From: Candidatus Bathyarchaeota archaeon
GTDB lineage: Archaea > Thermoproteota > Bathyarchaeia > Bathyarchaeales > SOJC01
Length of the DNA stretch: 36,468 nucleotides
Assembly: GCA_026014805.1 (NCBI GenBank)
Contig: JAOZHR010000030.1
Span: 1 to 36,468, forward strand
Direction of reading: 5' to 3'
Shown here one piece after another: positions 12,569-28,884 of this stretch (position 1 is the stretch's first letter; each line of letters begins with the position of its first letter). A program made the position numbers and the translations under genes. The notes beneath the pieces are model-generated. The model ran no database searches. It was not told where the DNA came from and saw nothing but the letters and a program-made list of their open reading frames with translations.

Positions 12569-13342
12569 CTACCAAACATTCTTGAACAAATCTTCTTTTT
12601 CGCTGATAACCAAATCTCTGGAAGAAGATTCTTCACCGAAGCTTATTCGATTTAATCCTTTAACAATTGCAACCGGTATTGCCTCTTTTCCTTGTCCCAT
12701 CACAAGCTCTGCAGCACTAGCCAATTCGTCAACAACGGCGCTGAACTTGACTTGCATAACGTAACCAAACAGGTCTTCTGAGCCGCGGTAATCAAAGAAA
12801 GGGTCGATTCCCCCTAGGCCAATTGCAAAATTCACTTGTCCTCGTCTAAACGACCGACTATACGTGTCAGATATAATGACTCCCACATTTTTTCCAGTTA
12901 ATTCTATGATGCTGGAACGTAGACGCCTCGCAGACTCATCGGGGTCTACCGGTAAGAGTGCATAACGGTTTGCGCCTTTTATATTGGATTTGTCTATTCC
13001 CGCGTTTATGTTAACCATGTCTCGTTTGTCTTCGACAATGAGTATTTCCTGTGAGGCTTTTAGAAAACGCTTTGATTCGCTCAAAACCAACTCTACAAGC
13101 TTCGGGTTTTTCCCTGTTGCTTCTGCAATTTCTAACGCTTTTCTAGAAGGTTTTACTGTATCCAGCTGAACCACGCGGTCTTCAGCCTTGGAAATCACCT
13201 TCTGCGCAACAATAAGGATGTCTCCGTCTTCAATCTCGACATTGTTGTTCTCTGCTGCTGAAACAATCAAATCGGCCAAATCATCACCTGCTTTTATAAG
13301 AGGAATACCTTCAAGCCCAAAAATACCAAGTTTCTTCACCAT
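12569..13342 (-). CDS. cofE: Coenzyme F420-0:L-glutamate ligase
   Basis: This 257-residue enzyme adds gamma-linked glutamates to F420-0 using GTP. Family features are DGDILIVAQKVISKAEDRVV near residue 40, NAGIDKSNI near residue 113, GVIISDTYSRSFRRGQVNFAIG in the middle (metal/GTP site) and VDELASAAELVMGQGKEAIP later. ATG 13342 has AAGG about 8 nt upstream. Its presence implies that the organism makes and uses F420. It is divergent from the ogg gene. A second, divergent copy of the family lies at 25595-26449. Confidence 0.95.
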   Translation of the reverse strand: MVKKLGIFGLEGIPLIKAGDDLADLIVSAAENNNVEIEDGDILIVAQKVISKAEDRVVQLDTVKPSRKALEIAEATGKNPKLVELVLSESKRFLKASQEILIVEDKRDMVNINAGIDKSNIKGANRYALLPVDPDESARRLRSSIIELTGKNVGVIISDTYSRSFRRGQVNFAIGLGGIDPFFDYRGSEDLFGYVMQVKFSAVVDELASAAELVMGQGKEAIPVAIVKGLNRISFGEESSSRDLVISEKEDLFKNVW

Positions 13343-23062: not shown

Positions 23063-23924
23063 TTATGTATCCAGCGAAGGTATTAGCCATGACCCGTCAC
23101 AAGCCGCTGAGTTAAGTTGCGGGAAACCTTCTCTGCAACTAGAGAACTTCATTCCCTCGTCTTCAACAAGCTCCTTAACTTTCTTCACGATTTCCAATCT
23201 CATTCTTCGTGGAAGATAGAAGCCTCGCCCTATTCGTTCTCCTTCCTCAAAGTATAAAGGCTGTAATGATTCGGCTTGCGTAGGAAAAGCTTGAATAAAC
23301 CTCTTCCAGTTGTCATACCTGACTTTGTACGTACTGCAAGTGACGTGAGAAATTCCGATTGAAGCCAGCTTTCTGACAAGTATTGCAGGGCCATCGTTGA
23401 GGAAAGGAATTATGGGGTCAATGCGAACGGATACTGGGATACCTTCTTGAACCAGTTTTTCTGACGCTTTTAGTCGTTTTGAAGGGGATGCGGCAGAAGG
23501 TTCGAGAGATTTCGCGATTTCGTCGTCTTCTGTGGTGATGCTCATGGAGACCATGCTTGGAGTTCTTTTTAGTAGGTTGATATCTCTTATTACAAGAGTG
23601 GATTTTGTAACCAGCTGAAGCTTGCAGTTGTGTCTTAAAAGAATCTGTAGACATTCTCTAGTTAAGCCTAAAGTTTCTTCTAAAGGCGGGTAGGGGTCGC
23701 TAGAATTGGCGATGGAGATAAGTTCGCCGTTTAGTTTAGTAGCTTCTTTTTTTGAGTCTTGGAATCAGGTTTTTCTTTGGTCTACAGCGAAAAAAATCTG
23801 GAATGTAAGAACTGACGTAACAGTATACACATCGATGAGAACACCCTGTATATGGATTCATAGTCAGCTTTTTGGGGGAGGTGCATAGTTTTGATTTCCA
23901 GGGATCGAAAGGTGTGATTAACAT
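23063..23924 (-). pseudogene. SplB-like radical SAM protein, frameshifted in an A7 run
   Basis: The first part (from ATG 23924) reads MLITPFDPWKSKLCTSPKKL, then a radical SAM cluster motif TGCSHRCVYCYVSSY. The frame is lost at CTCAAAAAAAGAAGC (A7 at about 23734-23740). With one A removed it continues as EATKLNGELISIANSSDPYPP and LVTKSTLVIRDINLLKRTPSMVS through to the end at 23063, about 286 residues in all. Only one lesion is present, so a sequencing error or transcript slippage is as likely as inactivation. The family (COG1533, spore photolyase-like) is widespread in archaea without known substrate. It converges with EF-2. Confidence 0.8.
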
Positions 23925-24433
23925 AGGTGGCTACATCAAAGGATGGCGTCGAAACATTTAACTATTAACGAGGTTGCTTCGCACGAGCTCTGCTCTGTAT
24001 TATGGAAAAGAGGAGAAATAGGTCTGCGTGTAAGACGCCTAGGGTCTCTCTAGATTTTGTAATAAGGCTTCTGAAATGGTTCAAACCACTCGATGCTTTT
24101 TTTTTGGCATGTGTGCATGAAACTCAACATAGCGTTAGAGCTAAGGTTCATTCTTGCGTAAATATGCGCGCCGAACTCACGCGGGCTTTGAGAAGAGGGT
24201 AACAATGAAAGAGAGACTAAGTAACATATTCACTGGGGAGGATGTGAACTCGTGACTAGATATTTCTTTATAATTCTGCTAAACTCGTCGTTGCAATCAC
24301 CAACGAATTCTAATTCAATCAATGAAAGTTCTTCAACTGTCATAGATACTTTGGACATATTTCCCAAATTTAACACTATAGTAGACTTCTTTCGCTTACA
24401 AAAATGTAAAAGTTATCTATCAGAAAGGATTTT
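23925..24433 (+). other. Gene-poor interval
   Basis: No convincing gene is present. A 36-codon frame from ATG 23943 and a 66-codon frame from 24002 exist, but neither has a family resemblance or a good ribosome binding site. They may be debris. AAAGGAT at 24424-24430 is the ribosome binding site of the following kinase gene. Confidence 0.4.
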
Positions 24434-25570
24434 ATGCATTCTAAGGGAGCTTTGTCCTTGAAAGCTTTTTCTCAAAATGTAGAGCGACTGCTGAGCCATC
24501 TAAGCAGGTTCAAACCAGAAACATTCAATGTAGTTTTGATGCCTGACTTCTTTTTGGATCGTTTCATCTCATGGAATGGAAACGCGAGACATTTTTCAAA
24601 AAGTATATCTGAAGTTGTGAACCGTAAGGGGGGGAGTATAGATAATGTGGCGCAAATGGAGACTAGGGGAGGTAACGCTGTTAACACTGCGGAGGCGCTG
24701 GCTTCTCTAGGCATGAACGTGTTTCCCATTGTCCACACAAGTAAGCTTGGGCTTAGCCTACTCAAGCTAGGCCTTCAACAATTAGACATTGATCTTTCGT
24801 ACGTTAAGGTAAATGGCACCGTTTCTATTACAACAGCCTTGGAATTTACACAAGGCAGAGAGAAGAAAAATGTAATGCTGCGTGATCTCGGATCTTTAGA
24901 AAAATTCGGTCCAAATAACCTCATAAAAAAAGATTTTTCTCTCTTAGAGAAGACTGATTATGTTTGTGTTTTCAACTGGGCTGGTACTCGAAGACACGGA
25001 ACAGCACTTGCAGAGACAGTGTTTCACCATGTTAAAACTGAGGGCAGAGGCAAAACTTACTATGACACTGCCGACCCGCTTCCGAATAAACCAAAAATAC
25101 CTGAACTGGTCGAGAAAGTTTTGCTTCGCAGCGATTTGGTAGATATCTTGAGCGTAAACGAAAATGAAGTCATTACCTTTGCTGAGTATGTAGCACCTAA
25201 ACGATTGGCCAAACTTCAAGAACAATGTAAGTCCATGTCGGCTCTTGCGAAAGAATGCGCGAAGATTCTAGCTCAAAGATTTACCAGCCGTATAGATCTC
25301 CACGCCACAACCTATTCCGCTACTTTTACAAAAAATGAGAGCACCGTCATTCCTGCTTTCAATGTTAAGGCTTTGCGGGCAACAGGCTCAGGTGACGCTT
25401 GGAATGCAGGCAATATATATGCAGACGCAAACGATTTTCCAGTTGACCTGAGACTTATGTTTGCAAATGCTGTTGCAGCTTATTACATTAGCGGCCCAAC
25501 CGGTGAACACCCGCAGGTGTCGCACCTCCGCAATTTCCTTCAAAGAACACTTAGCCAAAGTAATCGATAG
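24434..25570 (+). CDS. PfkB/ribokinase-family carbohydrate kinase
   Basis: This 378-residue protein has the two PfkB signatures. GGNAVNTAEALASLGMNVFP lies near residue 78 (substrate-binding lid), and ALRATGSGDAWNAGNIYA near residue 315 contains catalytic base Asp321. Between them are NWAGTRR and TADPLPN, which could line the sugar site. It is longer than ribokinase, with an N-terminal extension of about 30 residues. The substrate is unknown: sugar, nucleoside or ADP-dependent variants are possible. ATG 24434 has AAAGGA closely upstream. It is followed after 24 nt by a CofE-like gene, so the two probably act in one pathway. Confidence 0.85.
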   Translation: MHSKGALSLKAFSQNVERLLSHLSRFKPETFNVVLMPDFFLDRFISWNGNARHFSKSISEVVNRKGGSIDNVAQMETRGGNAVNTAEALASLGMNVFPIVHTSKLGLSLLKLGLQQLDIDLSYVKVNGTVSITTALEFTQGREKKNVMLRDLGSLEKFGPNNLIKKDFSLLEKTDYVCVFNWAGTRRHGTALAETVFHHVKTEGRGKTYYDTADPLPNKPKIPELVEKVLLRSDLVDILSVNENEVITFAEYVAPKRLAKLQEQCKSMSALAKECAKILAQRFTSRIDLHATTYSATFTKNESTVIPAFNVKALRATGSGDAWNAGNIYADANDFPVDLRLMFANAVAAYYISGPTGEHPQVSHLRNFLQRTLSQSNR

Positions 25571-25594
25571 CGGTCATCTGTGCTGTGATTAACT

Positions 25595-26449
25595 GTGAAG
25601 CGCTACAAAGCCTTAGCCGTCAAGACACAGTACTGGAAACCTAATGTGGACTATATTTCCAAAATGGTTGCAGCTTTGAAAGGCAAGGTCCAGGATGGTG
25701 ACATTGTAGTAGTTTCTGAAAAGGCGATTTCGACAGCAATTGGTAACATTGTAGATGAGAGTGTAGTGAAGCCAAGCTTGACAGCATGTTTTCTAGCTAA
25801 ATATTGGATGCGATATGTTTGGGCATATGTTCTTGGGCCACTCTGCCACTTGCGAAAGAGAGCAATTCTTCACTTTAGAAATTATCCTATCCAAGAAGGT
25901 AGTGCTCATAAACAAGTAGCGCTGCAATATTGCGGCTTTTTGCAAGCGTTAATGCATAGCTCTGAAGGCGGAATTGATGGCAGCAATCTTCCATACTCGT
26001 ATGTTAGTTTGCTCCTGAATAACAGTTATCGTGTAACAGAAAGAATTCGTTGTAGCATAGAAGCAGAGCTTGATAAAAATGTAGGTGTCATGATTGTTGA
26101 TACTGATAAAACGTATTCTTGGAGAAACTTTCATTTTACTCCCAGACCTAAGCCGATTAAGGGAATACTGTCTGTAGGAGGTTTTCTTAGCTATATCGTC
26201 GCGCGGGTCTTGAACTTAAAGAGAAGATCTACTCCGTTGGCTCTTGCTGGCATAAGTATGGGTATCGAAGAGGCTTTAGAGGTTGCAGAGTTGGCCGATC
26301 GTGCTCGAGGTTTTGGCGCGGGAAGGACAATTTGGAGCATGGCTGAAACTTTCAACGTTTCTTTAACAGGTGTTTCTTGGAAAATGCTGGAAGAAACAGA
26401 ACACAGGCCTATTGTTGTGGTTAGATCGATACATTTTGTGCGTGTCTAG
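25595..26449 (+). CDS. Divergent CofE-like (F420 gamma-glutamyl ligase family) protein
   Basis: This 284-residue protein is a remote paralog of CofE. It keeps the N-terminal DGDIVVVSEKAISTAIGNIV, a GGIDGSNLP segment matching the CofE GIDKSN site, and GVMIVDTDKTYSW matching the SDT metal/GTP region. The segment after it (NFHFTPRPKPIKGILSVGG) differs from the RRGQVNFAIG of the true CofE at 12569. It also has an insert of about 30 residues after residue 70. The start is GTG 25595. Because a normal cofE is present, this copy probably ligates an amino acid to another molecule. Co-location with a PfkB-like kinase hints at a small phosphorylated substrate. Function not known. Confidence 0.75.
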   Translation: MKRYKALAVKTQYWKPNVDYISKMVAALKGKVQDGDIVVVSEKAISTAIGNIVDESVVKPSLTACFLAKYWMRYVWAYVLGPLCHLRKRAILHFRNYPIQEGSAHKQVALQYCGFLQALMHSSEGGIDGSNLPYSYVSLLLNNSYRVTERIRCSIEAELDKNVGVMIVDTDKTYSWRNFHFTPRPKPIKGILSVGGFLSYIVARVLNLKRRSTPLALAGISMGIEEALEVAELADRARGFGAGRTIWSMAETFNVSLTGVSWKMLEETEHRPIVVVRSIHFVRV

Positions 26450-26567: not shown

Positions 26568-28067
26568 ATGAGTTCAATAATTAAGCAGATGGGCACGTTT
26601 TTCAACCCGAAATCAGTTGCAGTAGTTGGCGCCTCCAAAAAAATCTACAAGGCAGGGCATGTAATTTTCAAGAACTTCGCTGAAAACAAGAGAAGAGGTG
26701 TATTCAAGGGAGAGTTATATCCAGTCAACCGCCATGAAACCCACATTCTGGGATACAAAACTTATCCTTCACTAGCCAAAATACGTGGGGGAATCGAGCT
26801 TGTTGTAATTGTTGTGCCTGCTGTGGGTGTTCTCAGCGTTATGAAAGATGCTGCTGCAAAAGGCGTCAAAGTCGCAGTGATAATTACCGCTGGATTCAGC
26901 GAAATTGGAAAGACTGAACTTGAAAACGCTGTGGTTTCAGTTGCAAAAGAAGCTAACATTCGAATTTTAGGACCTAACTGCCTTGGCGTCTACGACATAA
27001 GCACTGGAGTCGACATGTTGTTCTTGCCAGAAACAAAAGTGCTAACAACTGGGGACGAATTCGTTGCAACCCCTCGCCCTATGGCGGGACATCTTGCAAT
27101 GATTACTCAAAGTGGCGCTTTTGGCGTTGCTGCACTTGATTACTTGAGTGGAATGCAGATGGGTGTAAGCAAGTTCGTGAGTTTCGGAAATAAATGTGAT
27201 GTAGCTGAGGCTGAGATGCTTGAATACTTTCTTCATGACGACGAAACGTGGGTGATACTTCTTTATGCTGAAGCTATAGAAGCTGGTAGGGAATTCATGA
27301 AGGCTGCGGAGAAAGTTACAAAAAGAAAGCCAATAGTTGCCTTAAAGAGCGGGAGAACTAAGGCTGGTGCTAGAGCTGCTGCTTCTCATACAGGAGCCAT
27401 TGCAGGGTCGGACAAAATCTATGATGCGGCTTTTGCTAAAGTGGGTGTCATTCGCGTTAAGGATATGGAAGAATTTTTTGATGTTGGCAAAGCTTTTACT
27501 TTTCAGCCGCCGGCTGCTGGAAATAGCATTGGAATTCTTACTGATGCGGGAGGGCCAAGTGTGATGGCTGTTGATGAGTGTGAGTTACGGGGTTTAACGG
27601 TTGAAACGTTCTCTGATGAGGTTCTTGAAAAGTTTGAAAAGTTGAAAAGGGAGGGAGGGCTGCCCAAGTTTGCTACCACCTTGAATCCGGTTGATATTAC
27701 GGGTTCTGCAACTTCTGAGATGTTTGAGCTCTCAGCAAGGATTTTGTTAGATGCACCTGAAGTTGACGGTTTAATTGTGTTGGGTCTGCATCATACTCCC
27801 GCTTTGCAGGAAGATTTTGTGGACCGAATAGCGAATTTGGCGAAGAGTTATACAAAGCCTGTTGTTGCCTGTGACATTGGAGAGACAGAGATGGCGTTGT
27901 TTATCCGTTCAAGATTTGAAAAGCTGGGAATTCCTGCTTACTCTACACCGGAAGACGCGGCGCGAGCGATGACTGCGTTGGTGTATTACGGTAAATATTT
28001 GAGGAAAATAGATTGCTTTAATGATTATTTGGAGATCTATGCGAAGAGACATGGCGTTAGCTTTTGA
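26568..28067 (+). CDS. ADP-forming acyl-CoA synthetase, alpha (CoA-binding) subunit
   Basis: This 499-residue protein has a Rossmann CoA-binding domain (FNPKSVAVVGASKKIYKAG onward, then GPNCLGVYD), two succinyl-CoA synthetase-like flavodoxin domains (ITQSGAFGVAALDYLS), and the phosphohistidine site AAASHTGAIAG with His274. It makes acetate or another acid plus ATP from acyl-CoA, ADP and phosphate in many archaea that ferment peptides or sugars. The ATP-grasp beta domain is missing, so a separate beta subunit must be encoded elsewhere. ATG 26568 has GGAG 8 nt upstream. The 3' end overlaps the convergent ribK by 11 nt. Confidence 0.92.
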   Translation: MSSIIKQMGTFFNPKSVAVVGASKKIYKAGHVIFKNFAENKRRGVFKGELYPVNRHETHILGYKTYPSLAKIRGGIELVVIVVPAVGVLSVMKDAAAKGVKVAVIITAGFSEIGKTELENAVVSVAKEANIRILGPNCLGVYDISTGVDMLFLPETKVLTTGDEFVATPRPMAGHLAMITQSGAFGVAALDYLSGMQMGVSKFVSFGNKCDVAEAEMLEYFLHDDETWVILLYAEAIEAGREFMKAAEKVTKRKPIVALKSGRTKAGARAAASHTGAIAGSDKIYDAAFAKVGVIRVKDMEEFFDVGKAFTFQPPAAGNSIGILTDAGGPSVMAVDECELRGLTVETFSDEVLEKFEKLKREGGLPKFATTLNPVDITGSATSEMFELSARILLDAPEVDGLIVLGLHHTPALQEDFVDRIANLAKSYTKPVVACDIGETEMALFIRSRFEKLGIPAYSTPEDAARAMTALVYYGKYLRKIDCFNDYLEIYAKRHGVSF

Positions 28068-28467
28068 TGTTGGTGTCTAAGTATATTGTTAGTTTGACTT
28101 CGTCGCTGTCCTTTAGCGACAGTGTTTTGCGTAGATGAACTGGTGCAATGATTTCTAGGACATTGGGTGGATGGTTTGTTTTTTCGGGGAGGACAATGGC
28201 TCCTTTGATTTTGTTCATTATCAATACATTGAAGCATTGGGCTTGAGAGAAACCCTCTGCTGGGGTGATTTTGATGCCTTTAGACTCTTTTAAGATTTTT
28301 TCTAGTTTTTTTGTTTCTCTTTTTGGAAGGTGAATGTTTAATGTTCCAAAGTAAGGGGTAAAGCTTAGTTTTTCTTTGATTTGCCTTGTTGCCCAGGGAA
28401 TTCTGACAAATTGGCTTCCAGTTCCTTCGCCGCTGAATACGTTTCCTTTTATTGTGACTGTGTTCAT
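28057..28467 (-). CDS. ribK: CTP-dependent riboflavin kinase
   Basis: This 136-residue enzyme makes FMN from riboflavin using CTP, as archaea do in place of bacterial RibF. Family signatures are the N-terminal VFSGEGTGSQFVRIPW and YFGTLNIHLP, with a C-terminal strand near IIAPVHLRKTLSLKDSDEVK. It lacks the fused N-terminal helix-turn-helix present in some archaeal RibK/RbkR, so it is the enzyme-only form. ATG 28467 has AAGGTC about 6 nt upstream. It follows an unknown gene by 54 nt on the same strand. Confidence 0.9.
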   Translation of the reverse strand: MNTVTIKGNVFSGEGTGSQFVRIPWATRQIKEKLSFTPYFGTLNIHLPKRETKKLEKILKESKGIKITPAEGFSQAQCFNVLIMNKIKGAIVLPEKTNHPPNVLEIIAPVHLRKTLSLKDSDEVKLTIYLDTNIKS

Positions 28468-28521: not shown

Positions 28522-28884
28522 TTATTTCTGGGTTTTTAGCCATTCAGTTACTTTTTGGAACAAGGGGTTGGTTGACATGTCGATGACTGGGACGATGATT
28601 TTTTCTTTTGTTTCGATTATGGGTTTATAGGTTGGCATGGGAGTGTAGCTTAGGAAGGCCCAGTAGATTCTTCTTTTTTCTATGAGTTCTTTTGCGGCTG
28701 CTTCGGTGTTTATGGACAGGGGGAAGTAGATGAAAGCTATACCTCGGGCCCAGTATATGCCTGCTGTTTTTCCTCCAGCGATGATGCTTGTGAATCGTGC
28801 CAGATCGTCTGGTGTTGGGAATTGGGTGCGTTCAATGACTATGATTTCTTTGAAGGGTTCGTATTTTATTGTGAGTTGGTTCAT
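28522..28884 (-). CDS. Conserved-looking hypothetical protein, 120 aa
   Basis: I do not recognise this family. The product is a mixed alpha/beta protein without membrane segments: IIVIERTQFPTPDDLARF near residue 14, then a glycine-containing IAGGKTAGIYWARGIAFIYF, and a C-terminal helix QKVTEWLKTQ. ATG 28884 has CGGAG about 12 nt upstream. It lies 54 nt before ribK on the same strand and is probably co-transcribed with it. A flavin-related role would be only a guess. Confidence 0.7.
   Translation of the reverse strand: MNQLTIKYEPFKEIIVIERTQFPTPDDLARFTSIIAGGKTAGIYWARGIAFIYFPLSINTEAAAKELIEKRRIYWAFLSYTPMPTYKPIIETKEKIIVPVIDMSTNPLFQKVTEWLKTQK

What the first reader, a model, noticed from the sequence alone, without database searches (positions are those of the whole stretch)
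24434..26449. PfkB-like kinase coupled to a divergent CofE paralog
A normal cofE is at 12569-13342. The second family member keeps the GGIDGSN and VDT sites but has an insertion and a changed region after the metal site. It lies 24 nt after a kinase. This may be an unrecognised two-step pathway: phosphorylate a small molecule, then ligate an amino acid to it, perhaps for a modified cofactor, nucleoside or sugar.
Basis: partly seen in the sequence, partly recalled or inferred. Interest (0 to 1): 0.55.

Follow-up and report, generated by a model that had tools for sequence, protein, structure and literature searches.

The report
CofE-like ligase of archaeal C1 metabolism
An uncharacterised relative of the enzyme that adds glutamate tails to a microbial cofactor turns out to travel with the genes for one-carbon (CO2-fixing) metabolism in many uncultured archaea, so it probably adds such a tail to a one-carbon carrier; the sugar-kinase gene beside it is a neighbour in one family only.

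Summary
In detail: window 24434-25570 is a PfkB kinase and, 24 nt on, 25595-26449 is a divergent PF01996 (CofE-family) protein. The proposed kinase-ligase pathway is not supported: among 87 class genomes with both genes listed, they are adjacent in 6, all in the window's family; elsewhere the kinase lies beside archaeal GlmM/GlmU in 9 of 20 loci. The ligase is the real find. It forms a deep group (branch 2.87, 100/100) apart from canonical CofE, with an end-to-end CofE fold (Z 17.1), both CofE motif aspartates, and a replaced F420-contact loop. Across 300 genomes of the phylum it follows Mch of the H4MPT pathway (66 both, 6 ligase only, 8 Mch only, 220 neither), not F420 synthesis (29 of 72 carriers lack CofD) nor strictly CODH/ACS. 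In deeper lineages it sits beside MptN-like, Ftr, Fwd, Mtd, Mch, Mer or Cdh genes. Best reading: a nucleotide/metal-dependent amide (probably gamma-glutamyl) ligase that tailors a C1 carrier, methanofuran or tetrahydromethanopterin. The substrate is inferred; which carrier is unresolved (21 of 48 carriers tested lack core-synthesis markers of both). New subfamily of a known kind; no paper on it found.

The parts
25595..26449 (+). CofE-like ligase (P0002), 284 aa, GTG start; divergent PF01996 subfamily
25967..25987 (+). GGIDGSN motif, residues 125-131; D128 aligns with D109 of A. fulgidus CofE; D128 and N131 invariant 48/48
26096..26107 (+). VDTD motif, residues 168-171; D169 (47/48) aligns with D150 of A. 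fulgidus CofE, D171 invariant 48/48; the following residues replace the loop (G153-C155 in A. fulgidus CofE) that contacts the F420 ring
25778..25954 (+). helical insertion (residues about 62-120) absent from canonical CofE, holding invariant H105-K106
24434..25570 (+). PfkB/ribokinase-family kinase (P0001); adjacent to the ligase only in the window's family; elsewhere often beside GlmM/GlmU genes
26568..28067 (+). alpha subunit of an NDP-forming acyl/acetyl-CoA ligase (P0004), directly downstream of the ligase in much of the class
28057..28467 (-). CTP-dependent riboflavin kinase domain (PF01982), near the ligase in 6 of 21 class loci (window included)
28522..28884 (-). 120-aa protein without Pfam match, near the ligase in 11 of 21 class loci (window included)
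12569..13342 (-). canonical CofE (P0003), comparison only

Best explanation
The ORF at 25595-26449 is a member of an ancient CofE-fold subfamily that works as a nucleotide- and divalent-metal-dependent amide ligase on a one-carbon carrier cofactor (tetrahydromethanopterin or methanofuran) of the archaeal C1 / Wood-Ljungdahl pathway. By analogy with CofE it would phosphorylate a carboxylate of the carrier's tail with GTP (or another NTP) and join an amino acid, most likely L-glutamate in gamma linkage, working alongside the MptN-like ATP-grasp ligase. The kinase upstream is a separate sugar-type kinase brought next to it in one family. Shown here: homology, fold, retained motif aspartates, separate clade, co-occurrence and gene adjacency with C1 genes. 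Inferred: ligase activity, nucleotide, amino acid and acceptor.
For: Fold: AF2 model pLDDT 95.4, pTM 0.91; VIA-align Z 17.1 to CofE 2phn, 192 residues, rmsd 2.8, model range 2-280; the profile finds only CofE among solved chains. Motif residues kept: D128 48/48, D169 47/48. Phylogenetic profile over the same 300 genomes: with Mch 66 both / 6 ligase only / 8 Mch only / 220 neither (phi 0.87); with CofD phi 0.21, 29 of 72 carriers lacking CofD. Ftr in 66 of 72 carriers. Second test in the class, on genomes outside that sample: 32 of 33 carriers have Mch, and 0 of 23 genomes of two families without the ligase have it. MptN-like gene (over 270 bits) in 47 of 48 carriers and 0 of 15 genomes without ligase and Mch. 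Adjacency: in 79 named loci a neighbour within 200 nt is Ftr 10, MptN-like 7, CooC-like 6, CitG 3, Mtd 2, Mer 2, FwdB/D 1, CdhE 1; MptN-like and ligase genes overlap or lie at most 9 nt apart in L122, L123 and L127; 39 of 79 loci hold a core C1 gene against 2 of 20 kinase loci.
Against: No substrate evidence. Eight Mch-positive genomes of the 300 lack the ligase, among them G025 and G039 at 97-98% completeness, and G197 (98%) in the second sample, so it is not indispensable. Of 24 other class genomes without the ligase in the second sample, 17 have Mch (many are incomplete, but not all). In the window's own class the commonest direct neighbour is the acyl-CoA ligase alpha subunit (23 of 79 named loci), not a cofactor gene. 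21 of 48 carriers tested lack both MfnB and RFAP synthase, so what carrier they use is unknown. The genomes are related, so the counts are not independent events.
Confidence: 0.6

Rival explanations
1. One reading: kinase and ligase form a two-step pathway (phosphorylate a small molecule, then ligate an amino acid to it).
For: 24-nt gap, same strand, kept in 6 genomes of the window's family; the kinase keeps its GG-N and G-GD motifs.
Against: Adjacent in 6 of 87 class genomes with both; 62 listed genomes have the ligase without a strong kinase match and 33 the kinase without a listed ligase (the ligase list was truncated by the tool); the kinase lies by GlmM/GlmU in 9 of 20 other loci.
Confidence: 0.05
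2. It is a second F420 gamma-glutamyl ligase that lengthens the F420 tail.
For: CofE family and fold; 43 of 72 carriers have CofD.
Against: 29 of 72 carriers lack CofD and 81 CofD-positive genomes lack the ligase; the F420-contact loop is replaced; it scores 48.1 bits against the CofE cut-off of 180.65.
Confidence: 0.05
3. It serves the CODH/ACS branch (for example a corrinoid or acetyl-CoA synthase maturation step) rather than a C1 carrier.
For: Cdh genes nearby in deep families (L050, L057, L059, L060, L061, L127, L128) and CdhC in 61 of 72 carriers; CooC-like genes nearby in 18 of 79 loci.
Against: 11 of 72 carriers lack CdhC, including G144 (100% complete), G179, G450 and G420, all Mch- and Ftr-positive.
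Confidence: 0.12
4. It is a ligase for another acceptor, e.g. a folate-like pterin or a product linked to the acyl-CoA ligase next to it, with C1 linkage only through shared lifestyle.
For: A COG1478 protein of Chlamydia replaces E. coli folC (PMC1971073, passages); the acyl-CoA ligase alpha subunit is a frequent neighbour in the class.
Against: Outside the class the acyl-CoA ligase is not the partner and C1 genes are.
Confidence: 0.18

Closest known systems
CofE, coenzyme F420-0:L-glutamate ligase (A. fulgidus 2g9i, 2phn, 7uld)
   Same: Whole fold (Z 17.1), GID-SN and D-T/S motifs, N-terminal GDx-V--K--S-A motif
   Different: Below the equivalog cut-off (48.1 against 180.65), about 60-residue helical insertion, D-x-D after the metal-site motif in place of the F420-contact loop, separate deep group, not tied to CofD
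FolC2-type COG1478 proteins (Chlamydia CT611; TIGR04132)
   Same: PF01996 family used for a pterin instead of F420 (PMC1971073, passages; that TIGR04132 is the model for this group is recalled)
   Different: P0002 gives no TIGR04132 match up to E 0.1; archaeal C1 context
MptN / MyfB (RimK-like ATP-grasp glutamate ligases of tetrahydrosarcinapterin and methylofuran)
   Same: Proposed job: adding glutamate to a C1 carrier; an MptN-like gene is a neighbour and co-occurs
   Different: Unrelated family; MptN makes an alpha linkage (PMC8141765, passages)
Ribokinase / PfkB family (for the kinase)
   Same: Fold and motifs (Foldseek 1rka E 3e-17, 6ilr E 1.5e-17)
   Different: No PDB sequence match at E 0.001; substrate unknown

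Membership tests
PF01996 F420_ligase | score over Pfam gathering cut-off | tested here: met
   67.1 bits against 25
PF01996 F420_ligase | CofE fold end to end | tested here: met
   VIA Z 17.1, 192 aligned of 249, model range 2-280; Foldseek E 1.5e-09
PF01996 F420_ligase | aspartates of the two metal-site motifs (D109, D150 of A. fulgidus CofE; their role as metal ligands recalled, not read) | tested here: met
   D128 48/48, D169 47/48
CofE F420-0:glutamate ligase (TIGR01916 equivalog) | score over equivalog cut-off | tested here: not met
   48.1 against 180.65; the window's other cofE scores 277.5
CofE F420-0:glutamate ligase (TIGR01916 equivalog) | groups with canonical CofE in a tree | tested here: not met
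   split 100/100, branch 2.87; one long-branch row (G479) falls inside the new group
CofE F420-0:glutamate ligase (TIGR01916 equivalog) | occurs with F420 biosynthesis (CofD) | tested here: not met
   29 of 72 carriers lack CofD
CofE F420-0:glutamate ligase (TIGR01916 equivalog) | adds L-glutamate to F420-0 with GTP | not testable with these tools
   needs enzyme assay
FolC2-type (TIGR04132) | match to the model | tested here: not met
   no match up to E 0.1
PfkB/ribokinase family (kinase) | PF00294 over cut-off and ribokinase fold | tested here: met
   49.9 against 25.8; Foldseek ribokinases E about 1e-17
PfkB/ribokinase family (kinase) | G-GD catalytic motif | tested here: met
   T317 G318 G320 D321 invariant in 20; motif role recalled

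The most novel reading that the evidence does not exclude
This subfamily is the unidentified enzyme that builds the gamma-glutamyl tail of methanofuran (or puts a gamma-glutamyl tail on tetrahydromethanopterin) in TACK and Asgard archaea: a CofE relative devoted to the C1 carriers instead of F420, conserved across uncultured Wood-Ljungdahl archaea and working with an MptN-like ligase.
Probability: 0.35. Interest if true: 0.7.

Novelty: new variant of a known kind. Interest (0 to 1): 0.5.

Why it matters
The enzymes that add the second and later gamma-glutamates to archaeal methanofuran were stated to be unidentified in 2021 (PMC8141765, passages). A CofE-type ligase that follows the C1 pathway rather than F420, beside an MptN-like ligase and Ftr/Fwd genes, gives a concrete candidate and makes the chemistry of C1 carriers in uncultured Bathyarchaeia, Nezhaarchaeota, Culexarchaeia and some Asgard archaea testable with one recombinant protein. 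It also warns that a PF01996 hit annotated as 'CofE' is not evidence for F420 in these genomes.

Tried and rejected
Rejected: a kinase-ligase two-step pathway; a second F420 ligase; strict dependence on CODH/ACS. Tried without decision: MfnB and RFAP synthase profiles, meant to tell methanofuran from tetrahydromethanopterin. MfnB is in 25 of 48 carriers and RFAP synthase over its cut-off in 21 of 48, with 21 of 48 lacking both, so the two carriers cannot be separated this way. A single-sequence PDB search with P0002 gave only weak matches to helical repeat proteins and other unrelated chains, and the kinase gave none; the family profile was needed. VIA rows below CofE (Z 3.2 and under) are not used. 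Literature searches returned no paper that from its listing describes this subfamily; I read passages of PMC8141765, PMC1971073, PMC10861534 and PMC9635834 only, and the library lacks most subscription journals. An Asgard-wide count could not be run.

Full report
What is there. The window (contig C30 of a 1.79 Mb archaeal genome, 96.6% complete) holds a PfkB kinase at 24434-25570 and, 24 nt later on the same strand, a 284-aa CofE-family protein at 25595-26449. Pfam scores are 49.9 (PF00294) and 67.1 (PF01996) bits. The window's cofE at 12569-13342 is canonical (TIGR01916 277.5 bits, cut-off 180.65) and the second protein is not (48.1). The genome has four PF01996 genes; the other three score 230-261 bits and this one 66.8. 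Named relatives place the class as Bathyarchaeia (for example L150, bin87, by its coordinates the same chromosome as G184); that naming is an inference from coordinates and titles.

The kinase is not the partner. I searched 256 genomes of the class with each protein. Among 87 genomes with both genes in the listed matches (ligase list truncated at about 300 bits), the genes are within 3 kb of each other in 6: G000, G181, G184, G188, G189 and G191, all of one family. Twelve more have both on one contig, 98-988 kb apart. In 20 kinase loci from genomes other than those six, 9 carry archaeal phosphoglucosamine mutase (TIGR03990, 533.7 bits for the representative) and the bifunctional sugar-1-phosphate nucleotidylyltransferase (TIGR03992, 546.3 bits) genes. 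The kinase has a ribokinase fold (model pLDDT 92.9; best Foldseek matches ribokinases) and invariant GG-N and G-GD motifs in 20 sequences. A sugar-kinase role linked to nucleotide sugars is likely; the substrate is unknown.

The ligase is a distinct, conserved subfamily. In a 74-row tree the 49 members of the new group plus one long-branch row (G479) are separated from 24 canonical or long-form PF01996 rows by a branch of length 2.87 with support 100/100. Sixteen positions are invariant in 48 members: W14 P16 K43 E55 H105 K106 E124 D128 N131 D171 T213 G241 G243 W262 H270 P272. The predicted structure (pLDDT 95.4, pTM 0.91) matches A. fulgidus CofE over residues 2-280 (Z 17.1, 192 residues, rmsd 2.8), and the family profile finds only CofE among solved chains. 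The profile alignment puts D128 on D109 and D169 on D150 of CofE; that these bind metal and GTP is recalled, not read here. In CofE the segment G153-C155 and an arginine of the partner subunit (R234) hold the F420 ring (PMC10861534, passages). In the new group that segment is replaced by a stretch that begins with the invariant D171 and mostly reads D-x-T-Y or close to it, and a helical insertion of about 60 residues with the invariant H105-K106 precedes the GID motif. So the catalytic frame is kept and the acceptor side is rebuilt.

What it lives with. Within the class the commonest direct neighbour is the alpha subunit of an NDP-forming acyl-CoA ligase. It is found within the 1.5-kb flanks in 26 of 30 best loci (a few matches are short or cut by the locus end), in 13 of 21 wider loci counting the window, and directly downstream on the same strand in 23 of 79 named loci. 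In deeper families and outside the class the neighbours are genes of the H4MPT/methanofuran C1 pathway: CODH/ACS subunits, formylmethanofuran dehydrogenase, Ftr, Mch, Mtd, Mer and an ATP-grasp protein whose best NCBIfam match is MptN (NF040720, 233.1 bits, below its cut-off of 350). MptN-like and ligase genes overlap or lie at most 9 nt apart in L122, L123 and L127. Of 79 named loci, 39 hold at least one core C1 gene, against 2 of 20 kinase loci used as background (the loci differ in length). Within 200 nt the neighbour is Ftr in 10, MptN-like in 7, CooC-like in 6, CitG in 3, Mtd in 2, Mer in 2, FwdB/D in 1 and CdhE in 1. Some named loci are near-duplicates, so these are not independent events. 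Carriers include records titled Bathyarchaeota, Nezhaarchaeota, Culexarchaeum, Hecatellales, Baldrarchaeota and Odinarchaeota (Asgard), Sulfolobales, Desulfurococcaceae and Nitrososphaerales (titles as deposited, the Asgard placing recalled).

Who has it. Over one set of 300 phylum genomes the ligase (130 bits or more with A2) is in 72, Mch in 74 and CofD in 124. Ligase with Mch: 66 both, 6 ligase only, 8 Mch only, 220 neither (phi 0.87; outside the class 24/3/4/219). Ligase with CofD: 43/29/81/147 (phi 0.21). So 29 of 72 carriers have no recognisable F420 synthesis. Ftr is in 66 of 72 carriers and CdhC in 61 of 72; carriers without CdhC include G144 (100% complete), G179 (98%), G450 (98%) and G420 (97%). 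In a second sample of 80 class genomes outside the 300, 32 of 33 carriers have Mch and 0 of 23 genomes of families f10 and f11, which lack the ligase, have it; of 24 other non-carriers 17 do have Mch, mostly incomplete genomes but including G197 at 98%. An MptN-like gene over 270 bits is in 47 of 48 carriers, 5 of 7 Mch-only genomes and 0 of 15 genomes with neither. These counts ignore phylogeny.

Mechanism and limits. The simplest account is a CofE-type amide ligase that activates a carboxylate of a C1 carrier with a nucleotide and joins an amino acid, probably gamma-linked glutamate. CofE does this to F420-0 with GTP and metal ions (PMC10861534, passages), and a COG1478 protein of Chlamydia replaces folC in E. 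coli (PMC1971073, passages). Known gaps fit: enzymes that add the second and later gamma-glutamates to archaeal methanofuran were unidentified in 2021, MyfB of methylotrophs is an MptN relative that adds glutamates to methylofuran, and the HisA-like Orf17 is needed for methylofuran (PMC8141765, passages). A HisA-like gene (TIGR00734, 139.7 bits for the representative, below its cut-off) lies in 7 of 79 ligase loci. Which carrier is served is not settled: MfnB is in 25 of 48 carriers and RFAP synthase over its cut-off in 21 of 48, and 21 of 48 have neither (that these two are markers of methanofuran and H4MPT core synthesis is recalled). Those archaea must make or obtain their carriers in another way. 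Confidence 0.6 for a C1-carrier amide ligase, split about evenly between methanofuran and H4MPT.

Noticed in passing
window 23063-23990, - strand: A radical-SAM gene appears broken between frames: a CxxxCxxC stretch in one frame and the C-terminal half (ORF 23063-23554, no Pfam match) in another; a pseudogene or an assembly error.
   Followed up: partly
G000:C4:25836-26486 and relatives (L213, L223, L229, L230, L231): A further PF01996 clade (support 98/93) occurs also in G144 and G141, which have no CofD match, so it too may not serve F420.
   Followed up: no
L214-L220, L227 (about 300 aa): A third, long-form PF01996 clade (support 99/99) across the phylum.
   Followed up: no
window 28522-28884, - strand: A 120-aa protein without Pfam match is conserved near the ligase: 11 of 21 class loci and 23 of 79 named loci.
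   Followed up: no
21 of 48 ligase carriers tested, including the window's genome: Genomes with the ligase and C1-pathway genes but without recognisable MfnB (PF04476) and RFAP synthase (TIGR00144): the origin of their C1 carriers is unexplained.
   Followed up: partly
G000:C29:30410, C29:45719, C27:64659: The window's genome has three Ftr genes.
   Followed up: no
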